Of a stretch of DNA of 33,362 bases, positions 1 to 12,991 are shown piece after piece (position 1 is the first letter of the stretch; the number at the start of each line of letters is the position of its first letter). The notes below the pieces were generated by a model that saw only the letters and a list, made by a program, of their open reading frames with translations, did not search any database and was not told the origin of the DNA. Both the position numbers and the translations under genes were made by a program. This DNA is from Gammaproteobacteria bacterium (GTDB lineage: Bacteria > Pseudomonadota > Gammaproteobacteria > GCA-001735895). The DNA lies in the NCBI GenBank assembly GCA_022340305.1, contig JAJDOF010000156.1, forward strand, positions 1 to 33,362, written 5' to 3'.

Positions 1-42
1 TCACACAATTCATTCTCAATCTATAAATCGTGGTCTGTCCCC
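1..42 (+). repeat. Dispersed repeat core, copy 1 (cut by window edge)
   Basis: This 42-base element recurs almost exactly at 6257-6298 and 6443-6484. It starts TCACACAATTCATTC and ends GTGGTCTGTCCCC. Here it is followed by short GAATACCCC-type reiterations and then, about 30 bases on, by the start of a cyclase-gene fragment. The left end of the unit is outside the window. I know of no named family for it. Confidence 0.85.
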
Positions 43-73
43 GAATACCCCGAATACCATAATTAGGTTATCA

Positions 74-199
74 ATGCTCGAGGACCGTCTATCAGGCAAA
101 CTCGCCGTTATCCTGCACGCCGATATTGCAGGCTCAACCGAGCTGGTTCAATTAGACAAACTGTCCTCGGAACCAGACACAAAACTCAACAATGCCTGA
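74..199 (+). pseudogene. Truncated N-terminus of class III adenylate cyclase-type protein
   Basis: A 41-codon frame starts at ATG 74. Its first 29 or so residues (DRLSGKLAVILHADIAGSTE) match the start of the full-length cyclase at 3802. This includes the first metal-binding Asp in the HADIAGST motif. Homology stops after the Asp-Lys pair near position 160 and the frame reaches TGA at 197-199, so the catalytic domain is missing. DNA differences from the 3802 copy are mostly at third codon positions, so this is an old paralogue remnant rather than a fresh duplication. The GTTATCAATG start context is shared by both. It is very unlikely to encode a working enzyme. Confidence 0.8.
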
Positions 200-209
200 C
201 GGCGTCAAT

Positions 210-833
210 CTAAGGAAAGTTCAGATTCCAAATCGTGTCGATCGCAGGTCGGTTCTTTACCGCATCACACAGCTTGCCGAGATTTGGATATCTCTCGACG
301 AGAGCGTCAGGTTCGGGATGCCACTGCGCAATCATGAGCAGACAGATATCCACTACCGAGTAACGATGTCCAAGTAGGTAAGGTCCATCGCCAATGGCTT
401 CAGCCACCATTTCCCAATATTGATCGAGATCATGACGCGCTTTCGCACGGATGCCTTCATAGTCCGACTTCTTCGCCGAGTAGTGATGAGTATCCGCGAT
501 ACGGCATCCCGCCTCATAAAGATTTACCGCACTGAACACCAGCCATCGATAGGCGATGGCACGATCGGTCTGTCCGACGTCAGGCATGAGACGTGATTCA
601 GGATGACAGTCGGCGATGTGCATCATCATGGCCACAGACTCAGTCATCGTGGTTCCGTCCGGCAATGTCAAAACCGGTACCTGCGCTCGCGGGTTTATCG
701 CCAGAAATTCCTCTGTATATTCCTGATTGGAGTCCAGATCGACTTCAACCAGTTGGTATGACGCGCCGGCCTCGTTAAGTGCGGCGTGCGGTGCGAACGA
801 CCCGCACCCTCTTGACCAGTGAAGTACATACAT
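210..833 (-). CDS. Glutathione S-transferase family protein
   Basis: The 207-residue product has the two-domain cytosolic GST layout. An N-terminal thioredoxin-like domain (about 1-75) carries the INPRAQVPVL cis-proline motif and the glutathione-contacting TESVAMMMHIA segment. An all-helical C-terminal domain (about 85-200) contains a YSVVDICLLM N-capping-box-like motif. GSTs conjugate glutathione to electrophiles or act as peroxidases; the substrate here cannot be read. I chose ATG 833 rather than the TTG nine codons upstream because MYVLHWSRG is a normal GST start and an AAGGA lies about 10 bases before it. The gene stands alone between two decayed regions. It looks intact. Confidence 0.88.
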   Translation of the reverse strand: MYVLHWSRGCGSFAPHAALNEAGASYQLVEVDLDSNQEYTEEFLAINPRAQVPVLTLPDGTTMTESVAMMMHIADCHPESRLMPDVGQTDRAIAYRWLVFSAVNLYEAGCRIADTHHYSAKKSDYEGIRAKARHDLDQYWEMVAEAIGDGPYLLGHRYSVVDICLLMIAQWHPEPDALVERYPNLGKLCDAVKNRPAIDTIWNLNFP

Positions 834-1195
834 AACGAGCAGTTCCTTTATAGTGGACAAACGCGAAATGGGCGTCCATAGCGTGACGGCTCCCGGGAAG
901 ACATCATTGTCTTTTGCGTCGAAGTTGACACATTTACCAGCAGTCCCTGGTTTGCTACCTCACTCAGATCAAGTCGATAGCGCATTCAGCGACCATTATG
1001 GCTGGGGTATTACTATTTGCGAGTGCGATATGCAATACAAACCACGATATTCAGGCTAGCAAAGAAAAACCGATGCGTATCAAGATGATTGGCGTCAGGG
1101 ATAGAATCGAACCATCGATGCAAGGATATTCAGTCAGGTTTGTATATTTTAACTTGATGAAAACAGCTAGTTACATGCTTCCCGTTTTCGCTTGG
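834..1195. other. Gene-free stretch
   Basis: I see no convincing coding frame, RNA or repeat here. Short open frames exist on both strands but resemble no family. The right part is downstream of the broken protease gene and probably contains its decayed tail. Confidence 0.5.
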
Positions 1196-1426
1196 GCTAG
1201 GGAAAGATTTGATCCAGTCCAACTCGATTTGCTTGTCAATTCAGAAGCCAGCACCTATGCCTGCGTAATTACCGTTGATTCCGTACGATGTCACCGCAAC
1301 GATCATGTTTGTGTTGTCCGCAAAGATTGGCCCGGCGGAATCCCCAAAGCATGTACCACCTGTATTTGCGTTGTTGGTCAGCCAAATAGAAGTTTTCGGC
1401 GGGATACCCGACGAACCACCAGCCAT
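1196..1426 (-). pseudogene. Remnant of trypsin-like (S1) serine protease, C-terminal part
   Basis: The frame from 1426 down encodes the S1 nucleophile region, GGTCFGDSAGPIF (normally GDSGGP), followed by IVAVTSYGINGNYAGIGAGF. A TGA at 1243-1241 then interrupts it. Translation past the TGA in the same frame gives IDKQIELDWIKSF, the usual C-terminal helix of these proteases, so the stop is a nonsense mutation inside the domain (a single C-to-T change from CGA would explain it). The His and Asp of the catalytic triad and the N-terminal half are absent, and a TGA also lies two codons before ATG 1426. The Cys expected in the NCAG motif is Tyr. It abuts the end of the next gene (TAATG overlap). Clearly non-functional. 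Confidence 0.8.
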
Positions 1427-3147
1427 TAATCAAAGATTTGGGAACGCGATCGTTGACTCGGACCCGATCCCAACCCGACCTTGAGCTCTACGTTGCGCTT
1501 GCGCGAGTCGGCAATCCCGTCGTTCGCGCGAAAGCTCAGCTTGTCGTTTCCGCTGAATCCCGGATCGGGCGTATAGAGTCCAACTCCAGTAACGCTATTG
1601 AGCATCAGAGTTCCGTGCGTGGGCAACTTGTCCAGGACGAAGAAAAGGGCGCCCCCATCCGAATCGAAACCGGTGAGCTGGAGCCAGAGAGGCTGCCCGA
1701 TGCCGGTGGTCAGCGTGTCCGCGAACGCCACTGGCTTGGTGTTGCCCGGGTTCGCGTCCTTGATGGCGTCTCGAGCCTTCTTCCACGCGTCCTTGTATTT
1801 GCCTATGGCCGTCTTGGGATCCCCATTGTCCAATGCCGTCTGCGCCTCGACCAACTTGTTGTCAGATTCGGCGAGCTTTTTGGTTGTCTTCTGACAAGCC
1901 TTGCCGAACGAGTCCGAACTGCACACCAGGATCGATTCGGCAAATGCCTTGGCATTCGCCGCGAAAGCAAGTCCGATATCGATGTCCACCAATGCGCCAA
2001 TGGCGCCAGAAACACCAGTAAGGCCATTTGTATTCCTGACCGCCAGCAGCCTTTCGACAGCATGCTCGTGTTCCTTGAAGACCTTGCCGCCCGCATTCTT
2101 GTTCGGGTTAGGAGTCGTTCGATCCAGCCACTGCCTGGGTTTCAAGCTCTTCTCGATATGAGCGATACTGTCTACGATCATATCCCGGTCGAGCGCGTCG
2201 TCACCCAAGACGCCTGGTGGTATGGCGTCCACCATCCGCTGCAGGTCGCTGATCACCGCGTGCACCCTCGTCATTACGGCTCTCGCATCGACCGCGATAC
2301 CGGTAGGATTCGTGGAGTCGACGTCATAGTCTTTGCTGTTGAAGACCGTGATCAAATCGCCCGTCACAGTGATGTGGTAGATTTTCTGTGAAGTAAGATG
2401 GGTCTGTGAAGTACGATCGGTCACCCACAAAGTCCCGTCCGATTCGTCGACACTGATGCCTTGAGGGTTGTTAGGGAGCCCCCCCCTCGCGTAGGCGCTC
2501 GCCTCGAACGAGGCAATCAGTTGCCCGTCTCGTTCGATGTTGTAAACCTTGTTCCACCTGTTGTCAGTCACCCACAACGTTCCGTCGAAGGGATCTGCGG
2601 CGATTGCCTGGGGGCTTCCGAACGCATCGCTGAAGTCCGTTGTTGGGAACGAGCCAAGCAAGGTACCGTCTTTTGCAATGTGGTAAACGGTCGCCCGCAC
2701 GCCGGGAATCATCAAATCCTCGGTGGTGGGGTCGTCAACTACCCATAGCGTGTCGTCAAAGTAATCGGCGGCGACGCCTTCGATAGAAAAGGCACCGATG
2801 TCCTCTGCAGGGATGTACCCCAGGAGGACACCATCCTTGCTAAAGTTGACCACGGCGCCGCGGGGTAAAACGGGGTTCAAAAACTTCCTTTCGGATGCAC
2901 CCCACAGGGTGTCGTCGTAAGGATCTACCGCGATTCCAGAACTGGCTGTCAGTACATGACCGAATTTGATTTCATGCATCAGCTTGGGCCCACCAGGCCC
3001 ATCATCCACCGTGACTTCATAAACGGTCTTACTCGTATCGTCGCTGATCCAAAGCACAGGTGTTGGTTGTTGCGCGTTGACCGTACCGACAATGGCAACG
3101 ACTACGATGGCACTCGTGATTCCGATTTTTTTGATTAACTGCCTCAT
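1426..3147 (-). CDS. Secreted beta-propeller / helical / Ig-like protein
   Basis: 573 residues beginning with a signal peptide (MRQLIKKIG, then a hydrophobic stretch ending TVNAQQ, cleavage near 25). Residues about 28-290 contain four to five NHL/Vgb-like blade repeats with the recurring pattern GIAVDP..DGTLWVTD. Residues about 290-470 are a charged, mainly helical region with two cysteines (VCSSDSFGKACQ). Residues about 475-560 are a bacterial Ig-like domain of the Big_9/cadherin-like type (NTKPVAFADT, GTLMLNS, LSFRANDGIADS). It should be exported and may bind a surface ligand or polymer; no catalytic motif is visible. Few blades are present for a closed propeller and the last turns straight into the helical part, so the gene may be internally shortened. 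The last 16 residues (GLGSGPSQRSRSQIFD) lie outside any domain and may be read from decayed DNA. Confidence 0.75.
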   Translation of the reverse strand: MRQLIKKIGITSAIVVVAIVGTVNAQQPTPVLWISDDTSKTVYEVTVDDGPGGPKLMHEIKFGHVLTASSGIAVDPYDDTLWGASERKFLNPVLPRGAVVNFSKDGVLLGYIPAEDIGAFSIEGVAADYFDDTLWVVDDPTTEDLMIPGVRATVYHIAKDGTLLGSFPTTDFSDAFGSPQAIAADPFDGTLWVTDNRWNKVYNIERDGQLIASFEASAYARGGLPNNPQGISVDESDGTLWVTDRTSQTHLTSQKIYHITVTGDLITVFNSKDYDVDSTNPTGIAVDARAVMTRVHAVISDLQRMVDAIPPGVLGDDALDRDMIVDSIAHIEKSLKPRQWLDRTTPNPNKNAGGKVFKEHEHAVERLLAVRNTNGLTGVSGAIGALVDIDIGLAFAANAKAFAESILVCSSDSFGKACQKTTKKLAESDNKLVEAQTALDNGDPKTAIGKYKDAWKKARDAIKDANPGNTKPVAFADTLTTGIGQPLWLQLTGFDSDGGALFFVLDKLPTHGTLMLNSVTGVGLYTPDPGFSGNDKLSFRANDGIADSRKRNVELKVGLGSGPSQRSRSQIFD

Positions 3148-3801
3148 CCCTTACTACCCCCCGACAGATGACAATTCAGAGCATTGAGCCCGCGTGGGAA
3201 GTTGATTACTGCCATACGGTTTCGATTGCTGATAATCTTAGTGCTAATCCTAAACAAAGTGAAATCGAATTCGCGGGGGAAAGTAAATTCGACCAACACG
3301 GTTTCGATTACCAATGAGTATAGAAGAATTAACACCCCATTTTTCTTATCCCGCCAAGAAAAGAAAGAGATTTCCGACGCCGATCCTGGCTCGGGGCATC
3401 CGAAATCCGCCCGATTCCTGCCGACACGCCCAATATTGCGCCTTCCCACCGGTCAATCCTGCCAAATTTCAGGCACCAGGCATACCGATTACCTGCCGCT
3501 ACTTTTGCTCGCCGCAATGTGCTGGGCTGGCTGAGTTATGACGATCTCGTTGGTTACCCTCAGCAACCTGTTTGGGGATGCTGATACATTAATTGGTGCA
3601 AGCAGTCAGCGTCTCAATTGAACTCACAGCACAAGTCGGCTGCTGAGATTTCAGGTTCGGCTTTCTTGAAAGGGACCCTGAATAGGCGTGGTCAGGAGGC
3701 AATCTACAGCCCGGAACTGACGCACATGGCTAAACCTGTTGGGCAATATACCAAAGTACCTGTGATATTATTTGCTGACTTTGATTCCTATTGAGTTATC
3801 A
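3148..3801. other. Long gene-free stretch upstream of the cyclase gene
   Basis: About 650 bases with no coding frame I can support. The frames at 3144-3449 (-) and 3184-3534 (+) have no recognisable domain. A 12-base direct repeat, ACGGTTTCGATT, occurs near 3214 and 3298. A GGTCAGGAGGCAATCT segment near 3690 resembles the start of the repeat units at 6204 and 6389, suggesting an eroded copy of that element upstream of the cyclase. Confidence 0.45.
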
Positions 3802-6108
3802 ATGGCAAAGGATCGTCTGTCAGGCAAACTTGCTGTTATCTTACATGCGGATATTGCTGGTTCAACCGAATTAGTCCAGCAAGATAAACAGCTAGCCCAT
3901 GAACGTATCCAGAATAGCTTTCGGCGTTTTAGCGACACCATCGGAAAGTATCAGGGCAAGGTGCTTGAACTGCGTGGTGACGCACTATTAGCCAGGTTTG
4001 AGCGTGCCTCGGACGCCGTAACGGCCGCAGTTTCATTCCAGATTGAACACTCCCATTACAACGATGAACTCGCAGACGATCTTCGACCTGGCATTCGAGT
4101 AGGCATCGCGATGGGAGAAGTCGTAATTGCCGACAACACTGTGACGGGTGCGGGAGTTGTTCAAGCTCAACGTATCGAGCAACTTGCGGACCCAGGCGGC
4201 GTATGCATTACCGCTGCAATTCACGAAGCGCTTTCAAAGCGTTTGCCGCTGGACTTCGCGAACCTCGGCGAGCAGCTGCTGAAGGGCTTCGATCACCCGG
4301 TACATGTATATCAGGTCGAGTTAAGACCGGGTGAATCAATTCCTCTACCAAAGCCGGGACAGCGATCCGCAATACGGCCAAAAAACTGGCGGTTGATGGC
4401 GGCGGTAGTAGGAATGGCGGTCGTCATTACAGGAGGTGCGATGTATTGGTTTGAATCGCGAGAGCCACCGGGTGAAGTGGCAGTGCCAGCGCGGATGGCG
4501 TTTCCTCTTCCTGACAGGCCCTCCATTGCAGTACTCCCGTTCGTTAATATGAGTAATGATGTGGAACAGGAATTTTTTGCGGATGGAATGACCGATGACT
4601 TGATTACCGATGTATCCAAACTATCTGGCTTATTCGTGATTGCCCGCAATTCTGTGTTTTCATATAAGAATAAAGCGATCAAGGTTCAGCAGGTAGCCGA
4701 AGAACTGGGCGTGCGCTATGTAATGGAAGGCAGTGTCCAGCGCGTGGGTAACCAGATACGCATCAACGCTCAATTAGTCGATGCGACTACCGGAGGCCAT
4801 GTCTGGGCAGAGCGCTATGACGGGTCGCTCGATGATGTTTTCACCATGCGAGATAACATCACCCGAAGAATTGTAACCGCCCTGTCTGTCACCCTTGTTG
4901 ATCAAGAAAAGAGCGGTCGGGCTCAAGCGGAAACCAGCAATGCTGAAGCCTATGATGCGTTTCTTAGAGGCTGGACCCACTATCGACTCTCCACACCGGA
5001 AGATTCCGTCAAGTCGATTCAATTTCTCGAAAATGCGGTCAAAACTGATCCGGGCTTTGGTCGCGCTCATGCCGCGCTGGCGGCCAATTATTGGAGAATT
5101 TATGACAATAACTGGGCAAAAAGCACAGGGATTCCTTACTCCGACGCCCTCGAAAAGACAAATCAACACCTGGAAGAGGCGTTGAAAAACCCGACGCCGT
5201 TGGCCTATCGAACCGCAGCCAAGCAGAACTTTTATTTCAAGCGTTCGAGTAAAGCGATGGCCCAGGCTGAACGGGCCATTGCCCAGGATCCGAACGATCC
5301 TAACGGCTACGAGGCGATGGGTTCAATTCTGGTCAATCTTGGCAGAGCGGCTGAAGGTCTTGACTACATCAAAAAAGCGATGCGGCTCGATCCTCAATCG
5401 GATTATCTATACCGTTTGGGTGAAGCCCAGTTTCATCTGGAGCGATACGAGGAGGCGGCGGCTACCATGTTGAGGGCGACCAAACGTAATCCGCAGAACG
5501 AATGGAACTACTTCCTTCTCGCTGCAGCCTACGGTCAATTGGGACGCGAATCGGAAGGAATGTCGGCAATTGCCAAATTTAACAAGACCTTTCACGACCC
5601 GACAGACCACCAACGACCGTTCACATTGGCTGACATAAATACCTATTTAAATAGTGATGTAGCAAATAAGGAACGCCTGCAAGAGGGTTTGCGCAAGGCC
5701 GGTGTTCCGGCAGGAGAACCTCCAGCCCCCGCCGATACCAGATACAAGGACCTGGTCAAAGTAACGGAGGGCACAATCGATGTCGAGGGAGCGATCAAGA
5801 TTGATGCAGTCGAGGCAAAAACCTTACACGATCGCGGTGTCACTTTCATAGACTCTCGTGGCAGTAGTCTCTATAAACGAGGGCATATTCCAGGTGCAAC
5901 GAATCTATTATTTCACCAGGTCTGGCACAGTCTTTCCCAGTATGTTGCCCCGGGTGATGAAGTCGTTTTTTACTGCGATGGTAAGGACTGCCATCTAGCT
6001 GCTATCTCGAGTGCGCAGGCACTCAGCCTGGGGCATACCAAAGTTTACTATTTCGCCGAAGGCTTCAAGTCCTGGAGTATCGCTGGCTACCCTGTAGAGG
6101 TTCGCTGA
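3802..6108 (+). CDS. Class III cyclase - TolB-like - TPR - rhodanese fusion protein
   Basis: 768 residues from ATG 3802. The TTG ten codons upstream is less likely because MAKDRLSGKLAV matches the paralogue fragment at 74. Residues about 10-175 form a class III nucleotide cyclase domain with metal-binding Asp17 (HADIAGST) and Asp60 (RGDALLARF). The usual transition-state Asn is Val in GAGVVQAQRIEQLADPGG, while Arg124 remains. One membrane helix is at about 197-216. A TolB/FlgO-like domain spans about 240-365 (SIAVLPFVNMS, GVRYVMEGSVQR), then TPR repeats about 380-610. A C-terminal rhodanese domain (about 670-768) has Cys725 in the loop YCDGKDCHLAA. It probably makes cAMP in response to a signal sensed by the large C-terminal part. 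The HDOD protein across the repeats has a cyclic-nucleotide-binding-like N-terminus. Whether catalysis is intact is uncertain. Confidence 0.85.
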   Translation: MAKDRLSGKLAVILHADIAGSTELVQQDKQLAHERIQNSFRRFSDTIGKYQGKVLELRGDALLARFERASDAVTAAVSFQIEHSHYNDELADDLRPGIRVGIAMGEVVIADNTVTGAGVVQAQRIEQLADPGGVCITAAIHEALSKRLPLDFANLGEQLLKGFDHPVHVYQVELRPGESIPLPKPGQRSAIRPKNWRLMAAVVGMAVVITGGAMYWFESREPPGEVAVPARMAFPLPDRPSIAVLPFVNMSNDVEQEFFADGMTDDLITDVSKLSGLFVIARNSVFSYKNKAIKVQQVAEELGVRYVMEGSVQRVGNQIRINAQLVDATTGGHVWAERYDGSLDDVFTMRDNITRRIVTALSVTLVDQEKSGRAQAETSNAEAYDAFLRGWTHYRLSTPEDSVKSIQFLENAVKTDPGFGRAHAALAANYWRIYDNNWAKSTGIPYSDALEKTNQHLEEALKNPTPLAYRTAAKQNFYFKRSSKAMAQAERAIAQDPNDPNGYEAMGSILVNLGRAAEGLDYIKKAMRLDPQSDYLYRLGEAQFHLERYEEAAATMLRATKRNPQNEWNYFLLAAAYGQLGRESEGMSAIAKFNKTFHDPTDHQRPFTLADINTYLNSDVANKERLQEGLRKAGVPAGEPPAPADTRYKDLVKVTEGTIDVEGAIKIDAVEAKTLHDRGVTFIDSRGSSLYKRGHIPGATNLLFHQVWHSLSQYVAPGDEVVFYCDGKDCHLAAISSAQALSLGHTKVYYFAEGFKSWSIAGYPVEVR

Positions 6109-6137
6109 CCAAAGGTCTCGCAGAGGCCGCTTTGGTC
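6107..6137 (+). terminator. Hairpin at the end of the cyclase gene
   Basis: An 8-base inverted repeat, GACCAAAG / CTTTGGTC, begins at the stop codon. Its loop holds a smaller CTC/GAG stem. There is no clear T-run after it, so it may be a 3' stabiliser rather than a Rho-independent terminator. Confidence 0.4.
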
Positions 6138-6203
6138 GGTTATTGCCGCTGCTTCATCGCGCTTGAGCGTCTGTCTCCTCGTGAGCAGATCCTCAGTGAA
6201 TAC

Positions 6204-6305
6204 TGGTAGGAGGCAATCTTCCAACAGAAGCGGGCACTCGTATTTATCAGTTCATGTCACACAATTCATTCTCAATCGATAAATCGTGGTCTGTCCCCAA
6301 ATACC
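6204..6305 (+). repeat. Dispersed repeat unit, copy 2
   Basis: A roughly 102-base unit closely matches 6389-6491. Both start CTGGTAG..GG.AATCT, continue through GGCA.TCGTATT.A.CAGTTCATG and end in the 42-base core also found at 1-42. The core occupies 6257-6298 and differs from the other two copies by a G for T within CAATCGATAAATC. It lies in the convergent gap between the cyclase and HDOD genes. Confidence 0.85.
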
Positions 6306-6312
6306 CCTAGCA

Positions 6313-6380
6313 GTCATCCCCGCGAAAGCGGGGATCTCCCTAATGGCCTGTTGTAAGATTCCCGCTTACGCGGGAATGAC
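6313..6380. repeat. REP-like palindromic doublet
   Basis: 68 bases bounded by inverted ends GTCATCCCCGC and GCGGGAATGAC. It contains two hairpins, CCCCGCGAAAGCGGGG and TTCCCGCTTACGCGGGAA. This is the widespread proteobacterial REP/dRS3-like type GTCATTCCCGC element, arranged head to head with about 25 bases between. It sits between two copies of the dispersed repeat, so it may have inserted there or moved with them. Confidence 0.8.
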
Positions 6381-6388
6381 GCACCAAC

Positions 6389-6491
6389 CTGGTAGCAGGG
6401 AATCTGCGGCCAGGCACCGGCATTCGTATTCACCAGTTCATGTCACACAATTCATTCTCAATCTATAAATCGTGGTCTGTCCCCAAATACC
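6389..6491 (+). repeat. Dispersed repeat unit, copy 3
   Basis: Second full unit of the element described at 6204-6305, in the same orientation, with its core at 6443-6484. It ends in CAAATACCC reiterations about 40 bases before the stop codon of the HDOD gene, so the repeat approaches that gene's 3' end. Confidence 0.85.
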
Positions 6492-6528
6492 CAAATACCC
6501 AGACCGACACGACCATGAGCAATCAATC

Positions 6529-7767
6529 TCAGGCAAATATTTTTTCTATGTTTCTTTTTACGGTGATTGATTCTCTTAAAGCGACAATGATTTCTTCAGG
6601 CGTTATTCCCAGTTTCCCCACTGCGGGAATAGAGCTGACCAGTGGCAGAGAATGATTTTTATCACTTTTCAACAAGCCGTAATAATTCGAGACCAGGACA
6701 AGATCGCACAAATCAGCCGAAGCTTGATGGTTACGTGTCCAGTCACCACACTCTTCAGCTACCAAAATTAGATCGTCACCAAAATTCCATCTGCGCAATA
6801 AAAGGCCCGAAATTTCGGGACGCATTATCTGAATGGCATGGTCAATTTCCAGATGATCCAGCATAAGATGATGATGCTCTAAAAGCTCGTCATCTATTAC
6901 CAATACACCAATGCCGTGGATCAAGCCCGCCAGCATGGCCAGGTCTGGTGAAAATGATCTGTTTCTTTTCGCCAGAATTCTGCTAATTGCGGCGACATTA
7001 AGGCAGTGTTCCCAATATGAGCCTATCCGCTGCATATGCTGCCTGGGCAGTCGATTAACAAGTTTACCAACCCCGTAGATCATGACTAGGCAATACACCG
7101 GCACAATGCCGAGGTGTCCAATAGAATAGCGAACCTTTTCCGCCGAACTCATGTCATCATTATTGGCACATCGGGCAATATTAAAAATTTTCCTCGAGAC
7201 ATCCGGATAAGATATCAGTATCTGTGCCATGGAATCCACGTCGGTATATTTGCCGTTGTAAATCTGTTGAATCCTGCCAGCCACTGAAGGTAACGAGGGC
7301 AATTGAATCCTGTTGTCCATCAAGTTGTGGTAAAGGTTGTTAACAATAGACTTGTCTTCTTCGTCGTAATCGGTAAACAGGGAATGCACGCTAATGTCAT
7401 TGACGGCTTCCTCCGATAGTTGCGCCAAATCGATAAGCTTCTGTCTTTCGATTTTCATGTAGTCGACTGTTCCGAGGGCCTTTACATCATAGATACAGGG
7501 TCGTAATTGGGCGACAGGTTTGAGCGCCTCGTTTTCATCGGATGCTATGATTCTGGATTTGCCATCGAGGGCGTTAAGTGCGACTTTTCCCTTGATGATA
7601 AAAAGACTGGAGTTCTCGGTGGAGCCAGCCTCAATTAGTAATTGTTTATTCTTTGCGGTGCATACTCTGAGTTGATTGGCGAGAGCAATCAGGTGGTCGT
7701 CTGATAATTCAGAAATCCCCTTGATGCGTCTGAGGGTGGATACGTCTGGGATCTTGAGTTCGGTCAA
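6529..7767 (-). CDS. HDOD domain protein with cyclic-nucleotide-binding-like N-terminus
   Basis: 412 residues. Residues about 1-130 resemble a CRP/cNMP-binding beta-roll (LSDDHLIALANQL, SSLFIIKGKVAL), but the phosphate-binding-cassette GE....R signature is not visible, so ligand binding is doubtful. Residues about 148-350 are an HDOD domain: LPSLPSVAGRIQQI, the ISYPDVSRKIFNIAR helix, YWEHCLNVAA, and LIHGIG where HD hydrolases have HD. HDOD proteins are non-catalytic signalling scaffolds. The only early start in frame is TTG 7767, with no strong Shine-Dalgarno site and with a TAA upstream, so expression may be weak. It converges with the cyclase gene across the repeat cluster, which suggests but does not prove a shared cyclic-nucleotide pathway. 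Confidence 0.8.
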   Translation of the reverse strand: MTELKIPDVSTLRRIKGISELSDDHLIALANQLRVCTAKNKQLLIEAGSTENSSLFIIKGKVALNALDGKSRIIASDENEALKPVAQLRPCIYDVKALGTVDYMKIERQKLIDLAQLSEEAVNDISVHSLFTDYDEEDKSIVNNLYHNLMDNRIQLPSLPSVAGRIQQIYNGKYTDVDSMAQILISYPDVSRKIFNIARCANNDDMSSAEKVRYSIGHLGIVPVYCLVMIYGVGKLVNRLPRQHMQRIGSYWEHCLNVAAISRILAKRNRSFSPDLAMLAGLIHGIGVLVIDDELLEHHHLMLDHLEIDHAIQIMRPEISGLLLRRWNFGDDLILVAEECGDWTRNHQASADLCDLVLVSNYYGLLKSDKNHSLPLVSSIPAVGKLGITPEEIIVALRESITVKRNIEKIFA

Positions 7768-7822
7768 TTCGTTTAATCTACTAAATTAGTTATAAATAAT
7801 ATCATTTAATGAGTTGGCATTT

Positions 7823-8110
7823 TCAACTTACCGGTGAATCGCCGAATCCTTTCTCGAGATCGGCGGACACTGGCAAGGTCGTGGCCTCGACAATCCTACG
7901 ACAATGCTCGAGCGTATCTGCGCGCGATACCGTACCCTCCTGCCAGCCAGGCGCAAAAGCCATACCGGCACTGGTAGTGGCGAGCGCCTCGAACCCCATG
8001 GACGCGAGAATGCGCGGGCTGCCGACATCCCAGGGATTGGGAATAACGAAGGCACCCTCACGTTGATGCAGTGCACGAAATACGCTACCCATGTTACTTG
8101 TTTCAATCAT
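7823..8110 (-). pseudogene. Truncated isocitrate lyase/PEP mutase family protein
   Basis: The 95-residue frame is the N-terminal third of a PEP phosphonomutase-family enzyme, normally about 270-290 residues. It has FRALHQREGAFVIPNPWD, ALATTSAGMAFAPGW, and SADLEKGFGDSP, which carries the metal-binding acidic motif. After GDSP the frame ends within three codons and nothing resembling the rest of the barrel follows. Only about 55 bases separate its end from the HDOD gene start. The lost C-terminal two-thirds looks like a deletion at an insertion boundary. It cannot form a TIM barrel. It lies directly downstream of selC on the same strand. Confidence 0.8.
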
Positions 8111-8185: not shown

Positions 8186-8280
8186 TGGCGGAAAAGGGTG
8201 GGAATCGAACCCACCAGGGACGTTTAACGCCCCCCTCCGGTTTTGAAGACCGGGCGCCCCACCAGGGTACGATCCTTTCC
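8186..8280 (-). tRNA. selC: tRNA-Sec (UCA anticodon), selC
   Basis: A 95-base tRNA, the same length as E. coli selC, starts GGAAAGGATC and ends CCCTTTTCCG with encoded CCA. The anticodon loop is CTTCAAA (UCA, decoding UGA). The stem CCGGT/ACCGG, the long GC-rich variable arm and the GTGGG-TTCGATT-CCCAC T-arm are all visible. The long acceptor arm contains one G-U pair (position 6) and probably a mismatch at pair 8. The tRNA is charged with Ser, converted to Sec by SelA and delivered by SelB. It lies 21 bases after the selB stop, probably in the same transcript. Its 3' side borders the decayed region. Confidence 0.95.
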
Positions 8281-8301: not shown

Positions 8302-10290
8302 TCAAACAGCCGCCTGCAGTTTGGCAAACACGCCGCCCGCAGCGGGCAGCAGACGGCGGCCCTGCCCGCTACGGGAGGTTATGCCCCGCGCGTCAAAACA
8401 TTCGAGAATCTCGATACAGCGATTGCGACCGATACCCGATGCGTCACGGAACTCGGCCACACTGAAAATGCCAGCAGGGGCGTTACTCTGCAGGTCTGCA
8501 ACCAGTCTTTGCAGTTCGCCCAGTATCTGTGGCAACACCAGCAGCTCGGGTGATAATTTGACGAGCCAGCCGGCGCGGCTCACGCGTTCGATCAACGGTT
8601 TCAATTGAGTCGCGGATAATTGCGTCGCCTGCGCCAGCTCGCCGGGCGTCATCGGCCGTAAACCGTTTTCCGCCAACGCGGACTCGACTGACTTCCAGTG
8701 GCACGAATCCACCGGATTCAAGCTGATTTGTCGTGTGCCCAGCGAAATACCCGCGCTATCGACCCTGACCTGTCCCCGCTGCTGCAGCCGCTCGATGAAG
8801 CCCTGCAATAGCCGTGGTGGCAGTTTCGGCTCCAGTTGGCTGCACAAGCGCGCAAGCGAAAAACCGGGTTCATGCGGATAAATCCGATGGCAGCGCTCGA
8901 GCCCCTGCAAAACACGGGTACAGTGTGCGTCAGCTATGGCCTGCGAAAATGCCAGGCGCCGACCTTCAACAGTCAATACTACCATTTCAGTTGGCAGAGC
9001 CTGTGCCTGGGCATGCCTGCCCAGGTTACGGTTTGCGGCAAACTGTTGCAGATCGACGCCACTGCTGCTGGTGTCAATCAGTCCCTGCAGGGCTGCTGCC
9101 GGGTCTTCCCGTGTCATCTGCTGCAACCAGCCGAGTCGCCGTGCATGGGCACGGCCGCGTATGGGTGGAAAGATATCGAGCACGCGTCCGCCGCCGAGCG
9201 TGCGCCGCGCCGACTGATCGCGGATGATCAGCCGGTCGCCATGGGCGGCACCAAGCGCATGATCACTGACCAACTGCACCAGCCCCTGGTCTCCCGGCGC
9301 TATTGCACTGCCTGCCAGCACTGCCACGCGCGCCGTTGATTCCGCGGTAGCGAGGTGCAGGTGTACTGGCGTCCAGTGTTGCAACGGACGCGGGTTGTCA
9401 TTGACCACCCGGATTTCGGCATCGAAACGTCGTATCGGGGTTACCAGGCCGGGTGACGTCACCCAGCAACCACGCCCGACCTGCTCCTTGCGCAAACCGG
9501 CGCCGGCCAGGTTGAGTGCACAGCGTTGCCCGCGGTGAGCGCAAGAGCTGACCTCGTCATGCACCCTGAGGGTGCGCACACGTAGGCGCAGATCGCTGCC
9601 GGCGATCGTGACGAGATCATCTGCACGCACCCTGCCGTCAAACACGGTACCGGTGACCACCAGCCCTGCCCCCTTGATTTCAAAGGCGCGATCGACCGGC
9701 ATGCGGAACCGCGTCTCGCCTTCGCAATCATCGACCGCATACGCCTGATCATCAGCATCATCCTGGGCCCGGCACTGGGTCTGCAACTGCAGGCGCAGTG
9801 CATCCAGGCCCACAGTCGATACCGCAGACAGCGCAAAGGTCGGCCAACTGGCGAGCAGCGTATGCGTACGCAATAATTCGACATCGCGTCGCACAGTGGC
9901 AACCCGCTCAGCGCTTACTCGATCGATCTTGCTGATCACAACCGCACCACGGTGAATCCCGAGCAAGTCGATAATCGCCAGGTGTTCGCGGGTTTGCGGC
10001 ATGATCCCGTCATCCGCCGCCACCACCAGCAAGACGAAATCGGCGGCAGTCAGACCGCAAAGCGCATTCTTGACGAAGCGCTCGTGGCCGGGCACATCGA
10101 TGAAGCCGATACTTCCACTGTTGCCGGAAGCATGCGTGGGAAGGTTTGCAAGCGGCAGGTAGGCAAAACCGATATCGATGGTCAGACCACGTCTTTTCTC
10201 CTCGGCAAGGGTATCGGTATCGACCCCGGTCAGTGCCTGCACCAGGCGCGTTTTACCGTGGTCAACATGCCCGGCGGTAGCAACGATCAT
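8302..10290 (-). CDS. selB: Selenocysteine-specific elongation factor SelB
   Basis: 662 residues, slightly longer than E. coli SelB (614). The N-terminal GTPase domain has all G motifs: GHVDHGKT near residue 7, [23 protein letters not shown] and SKID. The EF-Tu-like domains 2 and 3 follow. The C-terminal 250 or so residues are the winged-helix array that binds the SECIS RNA hairpin. It carries Sec-tRNA to ribosomes paused at UGA codons next to a SECIS. The ATG overlaps the selA stop by four bases (ATGA), so the two are translationally coupled. Next to selC and a selenoprotein gene its role is certain. Confidence 0.96.
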
Positions 10291-11702
10291 GCGCCGAAAT
10301 CCAGGCGGGTCAATTGCGCCGAAAATTCGTCGGCGTCTTCGAGGCAGCGACAGTCGAGCAGGAACTCGCCCCTGTGGATACGACCGATCACCGGCACCGG
10401 CAGCTCGCGAAAGGCGCCTGCCAGCCGTTCCAGCGATTCATCATGAGTCAAACCCGAAGCCAACGGCCGCAGGGCGATGGCGCAGCTTGGTAAATGGCGA
10501 TCGGGCAGCGCCCCGGAGCCGATTTCGCTATCGCAGTCGACCAGGCTGACCGTCGCCAGGCCTTCCATTTGCTGCGCAAGACGTGCCGCAAGCGGTTGCG
10601 CCAGTGCCAGGATGTCAGCGTAGCTGCGCTTCATCATTCGCAGTAGCGGCAATTTCTCGGCGATCTGTTGCGGATGCTGGTACATTCGCAGCAAAGCGGA
10701 TAATGCCGCGATGGTCATCTTGTCACAACGCAGCGCCCGCTTCATCGGGTTGGCATTCAGTTTCTCTACCAGTTCACGGCGTCCGACAACGATGCCCGCT
10801 TGTGGCCCCCCCAGCATCTTATCGCCGGAAAAAGTGACCAGGTCGGCGCCACGAGCCAGCGCCTCCATCGGCGTCGGCTCGTGCGGTAAACCGTAGTCTT
10901 CCAGGTCGAGCAGTGCGCCACTGCCGAGATCGACGACAAAGGGAATACCCGACTCACCGCATAATTGCGCCAGTTCGCGCTCGTCCACTGTCGCGGTGAA
11001 TCCCTGGATAATGTAATTGCTCTGGTGCACCTTGAGAATCAAAGCGGTCTGGGTGCCGATAGCCGCGGCATAATCATGCCGATGAGTGCGATTGGTGGCG
11101 CCGACTTCGATCAGCCGACAACCGGAGCGTTCAATAATATCCGGGATTCGAAACGAGCCGCCAATTTCGACCAGTTCACCGCGTGACACCGGCACTTCCC
11201 TGCCCAACGCCAGCGTGTTCAACACCAACATGACGGCGGCGGCATTATTATTGACCACGGTGGCGGCCTGGGCGCCGGTTAACCGACACAGCAAGTCCTC
11301 GATATAAGCATCACGCTCACCGCGTCCGCCGCTGGCAAGATCGTACTCCAGGCTGGTGTTGGCGCGCATCGCCTGAACCACCGCATCGATCGCGGACTGG
11401 GGTAACAGCGCGCGCCCGAGATTGGTGTGCAGCAGGGTTCCGCTCAGGTTGATCACGCGACGCATCGCGCGACCGGCATCCGCTTCGATGGCACAGCGAA
11501 TACCGCGGCAGATAGCGTCAACACCGGGATCCACTACTTCCTCGCGCCGGATCGCCTCACGTAACAGGGTCAGGCAGAGCCTCGCGACCCGTTTGACCTC
11601 GTCGCGCCCATACTCGGTTACCATCACCTCGGCAGCCGGCGAATTCAGCAGGCGATCGATGGCAGGGAGTTGTGCTAGTTGAAATGCTTGCGGATCATTC
11701 AC
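10287..11702 (-). CDS. selA: L-seryl-tRNA(Sec) selenium transferase SelA
   Basis: 471 residues, full family length, starting at GTG 11702 with AGGA about 11 bases upstream. A PLP-dependent fold type I enzyme converting Ser-tRNA(Sec) to Sec-tRNA(Sec) with selenophosphate. Visible motifs: INLSGTLLHTNLGRALL near 84, NNNAAAVMLVLN near 151, VDLGSGAL near 257, and the PLP lysine Lys295 in TFSGDKMLGGPQAG. E. coli SelA also uses Lys295. It lies between the selenoprotein gene (92 bases upstream) and selB (4-base overlap). selD, which makes selenophosphate, is not in the window. Confidence 0.97.
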   Translation of the reverse strand: MNDPQAFQLAQLPAIDRLLNSPAAEVMVTEYGRDEVKRVARLCLTLLREAIRREEVVDPGVDAICRGIRCAIEADAGRAMRRVINLSGTLLHTNLGRALLPQSAIDAVVQAMRANTSLEYDLASGGRGERDAYIEDLLCRLTGAQAATVVNNNAAAVMLVLNTLALGREVPVSRGELVEIGGSFRIPDIIERSGCRLIEVGATNRTHRHDYAAAIGTQTALILKVHQSNYIIQGFTATVDERELAQLCGESGIPFVVDLGSGALLDLEDYGLPHEPTPMEALARGADLVTFSGDKMLGGPQAGIVVGRRELVEKLNANPMKRALRCDKMTIAALSALLRMYQHPQQIAEKLPLLRMMKRSYADILALAQPLAARLAQQMEGLATVSLVDCDSEIGSGALPDRHLPSCAIALRPLASGLTHDESLERLAGAFRELPVPVIGRIHRGEFLLDCRCLEDADEFSAQLTRLDFGA

Positions 11703-11794: not shown

Positions 11795-12991
11795 CTATTG
11801 TTCCGGTGACTTCAATCCGTGCAGAAACCAGTCAGTGCGTTCCGCCGGTACCAGCGAACCGGCAATCAGCTGCAGGTTTTTATCGGCACTGACACGGGCG
11901 CGCTGCTGGAACTCGCGCAGCAGCTCACCGGCCAGTGTCCCGCTCCAGAACCATTCATGCAGTTGCCGCGCGGATGGCTGCCCGCCTTCGGCCATGGCGG
12001 CTTCGAGGTAAAACGCCTTGATGTCATCGACCGCAAAGCGCGCTCGCGATACCGGCGCCATGCCCTGCGGATTCGGCATCGGCTCGCTGTCATGGAAGCG
12101 AGCAATGAATTCCACTGCGGATTGGGGCGGGAGCCCACTGATACCGACCGTGGACCTGCCGATACGCTCACGCGCCAGCCGCCAGATCGGCATGACGCTG
12201 GCCGCTTCGGCCAGTACTCCGCTGTTATCCAGGCTACCGGGAAAGTGCCAGTTGCTGTCGTCATGAATCGGCGCCTCCTCGTTGAATTCCTCAAGATGTG
12301 GGGCCGTGAGCGTTTTATCCAGCAACGCCAGCGACGCCTGTAAAACCCGTCGCTGCAAGCCGCCATCGCCCGGTGTGCCGAAGGGGCGGCCGAGCTCGAA
12401 CGGCACCCATAAAGCCCGTGGTGGTCGCATTTTAACGATGTGCTCACGCACCAGCGCGACGATGACGGTGGCAAGACCTTCGTCTTCCAGGTAGTGGGCC
12501 AGCCCGCTCACGGCGCGCGTACAGGCGGGTCACACCGGGGCGAGAACGACCGTATTGACGCCAAGCGCCAGCATCGAACGCCCGAGTTCGCGCGCCTTGT
12601 CTTCGAGTTTTACCGGGCTGGTAGCCCCCATGAAAGCGTAGTGCGTATCGGCAGCTTTACCAATGCTACCCTCCTCTTCCAGCTCACGCAGGCGGTCGCG
12701 CGGCAGCACGACATCGAGGTCCTGCTGGAAACCGGTACGGTCGAAATTGGTCGACACGTGGCTGCACAGGATATCGCCGTCGTCTACCGTGGCGGCAATG
12801 GCGCGGTAGCCGGCTTCGTTGGCAAGCATGGGGCGTTCACCGCGCACGATAAGTCCAGCGGTCGACACGATCGCCACGTGGCGCAGAGCGGCCGCTACCG
12901 GGGTGACCGGGGAGGTATCCGCATAAACCGGGCAAGCGAGATCGGCAATTACCGTGCGTTCGGGTTCAGGAATATCGGCGAGTCTGACCAC
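11795..12991 (-). CDS. GrdB-like selenoprotein with in-frame UGA (Sec), UxxC motif
   Basis: One gene interrupted by TGA at 12532-12530, read as Sec. Upstream of it the frame ends GVNTVVLAPV; downstream it continues PACTRAVSGLAHYLEDEGLA without a frame change, giving U-P-A-C-T, the redox motif of the glycine/sarcosine/betaine reductase selenoprotein B-related family. Family motifs lie on both sides of the UGA: HVAIVSTAGL and NFDRTGFQQDLDVV before, RPPRALWVPFELGRPFG after. A GTG at 12991 (MVRLADIPEPER) fits the family start better than the frame opening at 13117 and gives 398 residues with Sec154. A SECIS-like hairpin follows the UGA. A cytosolic selenol redox role is likely; the substrate is unknown. 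No GrdA/GrdE-type partners adjoin it. It is co-directional with selA, 92 bases away. Confidence 0.9.
12503..12532 (-). promoter_or_regulatory. UGA Sec codon and bacterial SECIS-like hairpin
   Basis: Directly after the UGA (12532-12530) the RNA reads CCCGC (12529-12525), a loop of 17 bases, then GCGGG (12507-12503): five G-C pairs. An inner ACG/CGU pairing is possible. Bacterial SECIS elements lie immediately 3' of the UGA inside the coding region with the apical loop some 15-20 bases from it, which fits. The structure is judged by eye only. Confidence 0.65.

What the first reader, a model, noticed from the sequence alone, without database searches (positions are those of the whole stretch)
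11795..12991. Hidden selenoprotein gene split by UGA, next to its own decoding machinery
Two adjacent same-frame segments (12991-12533 and 12529-11795) join across a single TGA to give the redox motif U-P-A-C-T of the GrdB-related family. The gene is followed by selA, selB and tRNA-Sec on the same strand. Standard gene callers would report two truncated hypothetical proteins. Proteins of this family occur outside classical Stickland clostridia, with no partner reductase subunits here, so the physiological role in this organism is open.
Basis: partly seen in the sequence, partly recalled or inferred. Interest (0 to 1): 0.88.

Follow-up and report, generated by a model that had tools for sequence, protein, structure and literature searches.

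The report
PrdB-like selenoprotein beside selenocysteine machinery
This is a real bacterial gene whose internal stop codon is almost certainly read as the rare amino acid selenocysteine; it belongs to a known group of reductase-like proteins whose job outside amino-acid-fermenting bacteria is still unknown.

Summary
ORF 12991-11795 (-) reads through one TGA (12532-12530) to give 398 aa with Sec154 in a U-P-A-C motif. selA, selB and tRNA-Sec follow on the same strand. All 80 loci returned, of 191 relatives found in GTDB genomes, carry TGA at that site. Shorter relatives mostly have Cys there. Conservation continues after the TGA. Codons 158-160 (ACG CGC GCC) are the most synonymously constrained of 88 columns: 216 of 227 sites against 79 expected. 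This points to an embedded SECIS, although folding energy shows no excess. In the order, 10 of 41 genomes have selA, and all 10 have this gene. The protein is PrdB-like but misses the PrdB cut-off (87 of 300 bits), and its ~170-aa C-terminal part has no Pfam match. GrdE/PrdA and GrdA were not found in the 86%-complete genome. PrdB selenoproteins were reported from marine metagenomes in 2005 and 2008, so the kind is known. The substrate is not; a stand-alone UxxC reductase is the best guess.

The parts
11795..12991 (-). Selenoprotein gene, 398 aa, PrdB/GrdB-like core (about residues 29-230) plus a C-terminal part (231-398) without a Pfam match
12530..12532 (-). In-frame UGA codon read as Sec154 (U of U-P-A-C)
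12502..12518 (-). Proposed SECIS hairpin, conserved GU with 18 nt between it and the UGA; 5 of 7 proposed pairs form in this copy (G-G and C-A mismatches at the other two)
   Evidence: negative folding test
10287..11702 (-). selA, selenocysteine synthase
8302..10290 (-). selB, Sec-specific elongation factor (overlaps selA by 4 bases)
8190..8280 (-). selC, tRNA-Sec (UCA anticodon)

Best explanation
The gene is translated through UGA-154 by SelB and tRNA-Sec, directed by an RNA element in the coding sequence just after the UGA (strongly inferred from codon conservation; I put Sec decoding itself at about 0.97). The product is a stand-alone thiol-dependent selenoenzyme. Sec154 sits between a beta-strand and the start of a helix in an alpha/beta core (predicted) that is homologous in sequence to PrdB/GrdB. 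Its selenolate attacks an electrophilic small-molecule substrate and cleaves a bond at the attacked carbon, Cys157 resolves the intermediate as a selenenyl-sulfide, and a thioredoxin-type thiol recycles it (all inferred from recalled PrdB/GrdB chemistry). Substrate or activation must differ from proline and glycine reductases, because no pyruvoyl-type partner subunit was found. The gene tends to travel with selA-selB-selC and may be the reason these genomes keep the Sec machinery (inferred).
For: Sec column: 80 of 80 loci read have TGA followed by P-x-C. Short relatives: Cys in 3 of 3 in the genus, and in the phylum sample Cys in 15 of 17 loci and TGA in 2 of 17. RNA element: codons 158-160 rank 1-3 of 88 for synonymous constraint; 216 of 227 sites carry the consensus codon against 78.7 expected, variance 46.8; codon Sec+8 is NGC in 81 of 81 genes although it encodes Gly, Ser or Cys; hairpin pairing 84% against 26-61% in slid controls, with 4 double-change cells reached by 1 of 500 shuffles. 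Linkage: 10 of 41 genomes of the order have selA and all 10 have this gene; of the 31 without selA only G028 (gene in two pieces on two contigs) has it; gene and selA share a contig in 8 of those 10. AlphaFold2 mean pLDDT 93.8, pTM 0.92. Partners: PF09338 and PF04723 not found in G000 while both ring in G042 and G044; three other genomes that hold a family member (G041, G043, G045) also gave no PF09338.
Against: No experiment. The minimum free energy of the 57 nt from the TGA is no lower than in synonymous shuffles (mean z -0.26 at 81 sites, -0.22 at 209 control sites). RNAalifold finds only a 3-pair consensus stem in another register, without double changes. In one search the percentage paired was reached by 29 of 500 shuffles, the number of pairs with double changes by 46 and the covariation score by 235. 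Substrate, bond cleavage and electron donor are inference; apart from sel genes no neighbour is widely shared. The genome is 86% complete, so absences are not final. Other selenoproteins were looked for in three families only.
Confidence: 0.55

Rival explanations
1. Pseudogene or sequencing error: the TGA is a true stop and the two halves are remnants.
For: Only that no translation product is known.
Against: TGA at the same site in 80 of 80 loci read, from several phyla by their titles; conservation to the C-terminus; sel genes adjacent.
Confidence: 0.01
2. A true D-proline reductase subunit (PrdB) or GrdB working with PrdA/GrdE encoded elsewhere in the genome.
For: TIGR04483 hit over 205 of 238 positions, and a hit to it in 57 of 57 members scanned; PF07355 above its gathering score.
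Against: 86.9 bits against a 300-bit cut-off; PF09338 (GrdE, and PrdA as recalled) and GrdA not found in the genome, with working controls; about 170 extra residues; no partner gene widely shared beside the 80 loci.
Confidence: 0.05
3. A general thiol:disulfide or peroxide-reducing enzyme acting through UxxC, not a bond-cleaving reductase for a small molecule.
For: UxxC at a helix start after a strand; most prokaryotic selenoprotein families are thought to be involved in redox reactions (PMC9312934, start of abstract in listing).
Against: No thioredoxin-fold family hit; sequence kinship is to PrdB/GrdB, which cleave C-N bonds (PMC13188914, passages).
Confidence: 0.35
4. A separate question, not exclusive of the others: the conserved codons after the UGA reflect protein constraint or codon bias rather than a SECIS.
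For: Folding energy is not in excess; L068, the gene of lowest GC3 (0.31), keeps the consensus at only 1 of 3 codons.
Against: In the 14 genes of lowest GC3 (0.31-0.50) the consensus codon stands at 34 of 39 sites, counted from the rows printed; Sec+8 varies among Gly, Ser and Cys but keeps NGC in 81 of 81.
Confidence: 0.04

Closest known systems
D-proline reductase subunit PrdB (TIGR04483)
   Same: UxxC motif, homologous core over nearly the whole PrdB length; Sec-encoded; 'PrdB' selenoproteins counted in Sargasso Sea (42) and GOS (235) data (passages read)
   Different: Below the equivalog cut-off (87 of 300 bits), about 170 extra C-terminal residues, no PrdA-type partner found. Whether the surveys' PrdB are this long form was not tested
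Glycine/sarcosine/betaine reductase selenoprotein B, GrdB/GrdF/GrdH (PF07355)
   Same: Homologous Sec-bearing end of the GrdB profile (226-345 of 347)
   Different: Lacks the N-terminal part of the profile; GrdA and GrdE not found in the genome
selA-selB-selC operon with a neighbouring selenoprotein gene (fdhA) in Alpha-, Betaproteobacteria and Pseudomonadales (PMC1794560, passages read)
   Same: Same cluster design, proposed there as a unit of horizontal transfer
   Different: The passenger is a PrdB-like gene, not fdhA; 0 of 7 molybdopterin oxidoreductase matches in this genome has a stop in the matched stretch
Short Cys relatives (open frames mostly 310-340 aa, CPVCH/CPICH)
   Same: Cys at the Sec column in 15 of 17 phylum-sample loci and 3 of 3 in the genus
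   Different: Match only the front half or so of the family model (to position 228-316 of 396); 10 of those 17 loci hold a CaiB/BaiF-like CoA-transferase gene (family name recalled)

Membership tests
Bacterial selenoprotein | In-frame UGA at a column where homologues have Sec or Cys | tested here: met
Bacterial selenoprotein | bSECIS just after the UGA: loop with G in its first two positions, often followed by G or U, 16-37 nt from the UGA (PMC13188914, passages) | tested here: inconclusive
   GU at 18 nt and strong nucleotide conservation, but no excess folding energy and an unsettled register
Bacterial selenoprotein | SelA, SelB, SelD and tRNA-Sec in the genome | tested here: met
Bacterial selenoprotein | Sec shown in the protein | not testable with these tools
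   needs 75Se labelling or mass spectrometry
PrdB, D-proline reductase | Score above the NCBIfam equivalog cut-off | tested here: not met
   86.9 of 300 bits
PrdB, D-proline reductase | PrdA/GrdE-type partner (PF09338; that it covers PrdA is recalled) | tested here: not met
   0 in G000; rings in 2 of 5 other genomes; G000 is 86% complete
PrdB, D-proline reductase | D-proline reductase activity | not testable with these tools
   biochemistry
GRDB Pfam family PF07355 | Above gathering score | tested here: met
   36.8 against 22 bits, over profile positions 226-345 of 347 only
GrdB of glycine/sarcosine/betaine reductase | GrdB above its equivalog cut-off, with GrdA and GrdE | tested here: not met
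   48.3 of 602 bits
Sec-decoding gene cluster with passenger selenoprotein | selA, selB, selC adjacent with a selenoprotein gene | tested here: met
   in 8 of the 10 selA genomes of the order, the window's included, selA and the gene are on one contig

The most novel reading that the evidence does not exclude
This is a Sec-only, stand-alone enzyme family distinct from proline and glycine reductases, with its own C-terminal domain and an unknown substrate, spread across several bacterial phyla as the passenger of a selA-selB-selC(-selD) cassette; in bacteria like this one it may be the sole reason the 21st amino acid is kept.
Probability: 0.5. Interest if true: 0.65.

Novelty: new member of a known kind. 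Interest (0 to 1): 0.42.

Why it matters
Surveys give the name PrdB to UxxC selenoproteins of pfam07355. If they include this long form (not tested), the name is probably wrong for bacteria that, like this one, show no partner subunit. A gene with Sec in all 80 copies read that also tracks selA genome by genome makes 'why keep selenocysteine?' testable with one deletion. The near-invariant codons give a simple sequence tag to find missed family members.

Tried and rejected
Folding energy as evidence for the SECIS: no signal over synonymous shuffles. RNAalifold consensus: 3 pairs, no double changes; the longer version of that register, 14-18/26-30, has none either. Functional neighbours: clustering of flanking ORFs (80 loci, six further genus stretches, the window) gave selA and selB as the widest clusters, 18 and 16 loci, of which 13 and 12 are among the 80, plus selD in 6 of 80. 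The other clusters were small and pointed to no one function; some were antisense ORFs or pieces of further copies of the gene itself. A CaiB-like gene occurs also near 4 of the 80 long-form loci (L048, L081, L090, L115; 29-37% identity in the main piece), too few to build on. Solved structures: no significant sequence match (best E 0.52); Foldseek best E 7e-4 with TM 0.19-0.21, not credible. Viral contigs: none of 24 candidate stretches confirmed. Plasmids: one weak 35% match over 21% of the query. Other selenoproteins in the genome: SelW-type 0 matches, 0 of 7 molybdopterin and 0 of 18 AhpC-TSA matches with a stop in the matched stretch; for the first the Sec site may lie outside the Pfam stretch. 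Tree: the window's gammaproteobacterial clade (9 rows, support 100) falls in a 19-row set with 10 alphaproteobacterial rows (98), which suits transfer but does not prove it; two other gammaproteobacterial rows (L090, L102) lie elsewhere.

Full report
What is there. The minus-strand frame 12991-11795 translates to 398 residues with a single TGA at 12532-12530, read as Sec154 in ...LAPVUPACTRAVSGLAH.... By table 11 it appears as two ORFs, 13117-12530 (195 aa from a TTG) and 12511-11795 (238 aa from a GTG). After a 92-base gap come selA (11702-10287) and selB (10290-8302), overlapping by 4 bases, then tRNA-Sec (8280-8190), 21 bases after selB. The window is one whole contig (C130) of a 4.35-Mb genome in 169 contigs, 86.4% complete. 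The nearest named relatives are gammaproteobacterial MAGs. selD is on contig C131 and has the Cys form of its active site, CGGCGAK (read; the role of that motif is recalled).

Is it Sec? In the order, 41 genomes were searched and 12 matched. Orthologues (61-77% identity) lie in 11 genomes including the own one (in G028 as two pieces on two contigs), and paralogues at 40-45% in four of these (L013-L016). Every piece that spans the site has the TGA. Four further weak matches at 28-31% had no stop (L012, L018, L019, L020); the first three have Cys in a motif NCPVCH, the fourth covers only a C-terminal stretch. In GTDB genome contigs, 191 relatives were found and the best 80 kept. The search patterns do not touch the Sec codon, so Cys forms were not excluded by them, though only the 80 best of 191 were read. 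All 80 have TGA at codon 139-161, followed in all by Pro-x-Cys; my stricter motif fitted 55 of them. Four of the 80 have a further in-frame stop in the matched stretch: L058 mid-gene, L076, L083 and L104 near or past the C-terminal end. In 398 Pseudomonadota genomes drawn evenly, 16 matched: the own one with the full-length form, 15 over part of the model, ending at positions 228-234 in 14 of 17 loci and at 257, 289 and 316 in L146, L144 and L150. Of these 17 loci, 15 have Cys and 2, both in G184, have TGA at the site.

SECIS. Aligned without gaps from the TGA, 57 sequences share a block close to TGYACGCGCGCCGTNNGCG. Among 88 columns with a conserved amino acid, codons 158, 159 and 160 have the largest departures from background codon choice (KL 1.21, 1.04, 1.09 bits; median 0.07). 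With each gene's own codon usage as background, 216 of 227 Thr, Arg and Ala sites carry the consensus codon against 78.7 expected (variance 46.8); related sequences are counted each. The eighth codon after Sec is GGC, AGC or TGC in 45, 32 and 4 of 81 genes, and the fifth is CGC, TGC or CGT (64, 14, 3): the amino acid changes while the GC pair mostly stays. A hairpin on columns 15-21/25-31 with loop GUN pairs in 84.0% of cells (slid controls 26-61%), with C-G to U-A at one pair in 3 sequences (L067, L111, L112, all betaproteobacterial, so perhaps one event) and G-C to A-U at another in 1. One of 500 shuffles reached that number of double-change cells, but 29 reached the percentage paired, 46 the number of such pairs and 235 the covariation score. 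Its GU has 18 nt between it and the UGA, within the 16-37 nt of the published bSECIS model (PMC13188914, passages read). Against this, folding energy is not lower than in synonymous shuffles. The free fold of a 66-nt stretch of the window's own copy has z -1.68, with 8 of 200 shuffles folding as well. In this copy two of the seven proposed pairs are mismatched. So an RNA-level element is well supported, while its exact fold is not.

What protein is it? All 57 members scanned match PrdB (TIGR04483) and four GrdB-type models at E 0.001 or better. For the window protein PrdB is the best (E 1.3e-24, 86.9 bits, cut-off 300), and PF07355 is above its gathering score over positions 226-345 of 347 of that profile. 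The core is thus PrdB-like, with about 170 further residues that match no Pfam family (best E 0.2). The model is confident (mean pLDDT 93.8, pTM 0.92; 7 of 398 residues under 70): an alpha/beta core with Sec154 just before helix 155-170, then a helical part from 259 on. No solved structure resembles it credibly. Invariant residues in 57 sequences include H78, D84, D91, H117, the Sec column, C157, T158, E169, R192 and R202.

Function. PF09338 (GrdE-type, and PrdA as recalled) and PF04723 (GrdA) were not found in the genome, while the same searches rang in G042 and G044. Of the five other genomes with a family member searched, two have PF09338 and three do not. So a classical proline or glycine reductase is unlikely here, with the caution that about 14% of the genome may be missing. 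The gene neighbourhood offers mainly selenium genes: selA or selB in 14 of 80 loci, many on short contigs, and selD in 6 of 80. In the order, all 10 genomes with selA carry the gene, and 30 of the 31 without selA gave no full-length gene (the exception is G028). Gene and selA share a contig in 8 of the 10. tRNA-Sec was seen in the stretches from G003, G004, G011, G016, G024 and G030 and in the window, not in those from G021, G022 and G028. Similar clusters with fdhA as passenger were proposed to move horizontally as a unit (PMC1794560, passages read); the tree fits an exchange with Alphaproteobacteria but does not prove it. The mechanism (selenolate attack, resolution by Cys157, thioredoxin recycling) is inference from recalled PrdB/GrdB chemistry. 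A GrdB-related protein (FarB, with FarE) was proposed to cleave the C-F bond of fluoroacetate in a Synergistota bacterium (PMC10838667, passages read), which suggests that the scaffold's substrates can vary; that system does have a GrdE-type partner.

Novelty. PrdB selenoproteins were counted in Sargasso Sea (42) and GOS (235) data (PMC1088965, PMC2398784; [quoted passage not shown] I could not test whether those are this long form. Searches for PrdB-like, GrdB-like, proline reductase-like or selenoprotein B family gave 2 papers, both on Synergistota, and searches for PF07355 gave 4, all surveys or reviews; I saw no report of a function for the long form in what I read of them. The finding is correct and typical of a known kind; its open part is the enzyme's substrate.

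Noticed in passing
window 1-8000 against the rest: G+C is 47-52% left of 8 kb and 55-61% in the blocks to the right, with the jump at the end of the sel cluster: a possible boundary of an inserted or lost segment.
   Followed up: no
window 3772-6108 (+): Unusual fusion: cyclase catalytic domain, TPR repeats and a C-terminal rhodanese domain.
   Followed up: no
L140-L149: Ten of the 17 short-form loci hold a CaiB/BaiF-like CoA-transferase gene (82-100% identity to the L144 copy in nine, that copy included; 56% in the Sec-form locus L149): a possible clue to a CoA-linked pathway (family name recalled).
   Followed up: partly
G184, loci L149 and L153: Two short-form genes with TGA in place of Cys (UPVCH) in one genome, so Sec and Cys also alternate in the short family.
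   Followed up: no
G044 (genome of L077, titled Dehalococcoidia bacterium UBA2160): Eight PF09338 matches and a GrdA with an in-frame TGA in one genome.
   Followed up: no
L076 9235-10482; L072 downstream of the gene: Further pieces of the same selenoprotein family lie directly beside the gene, i.e. probable tandem copies.
   Followed up: no
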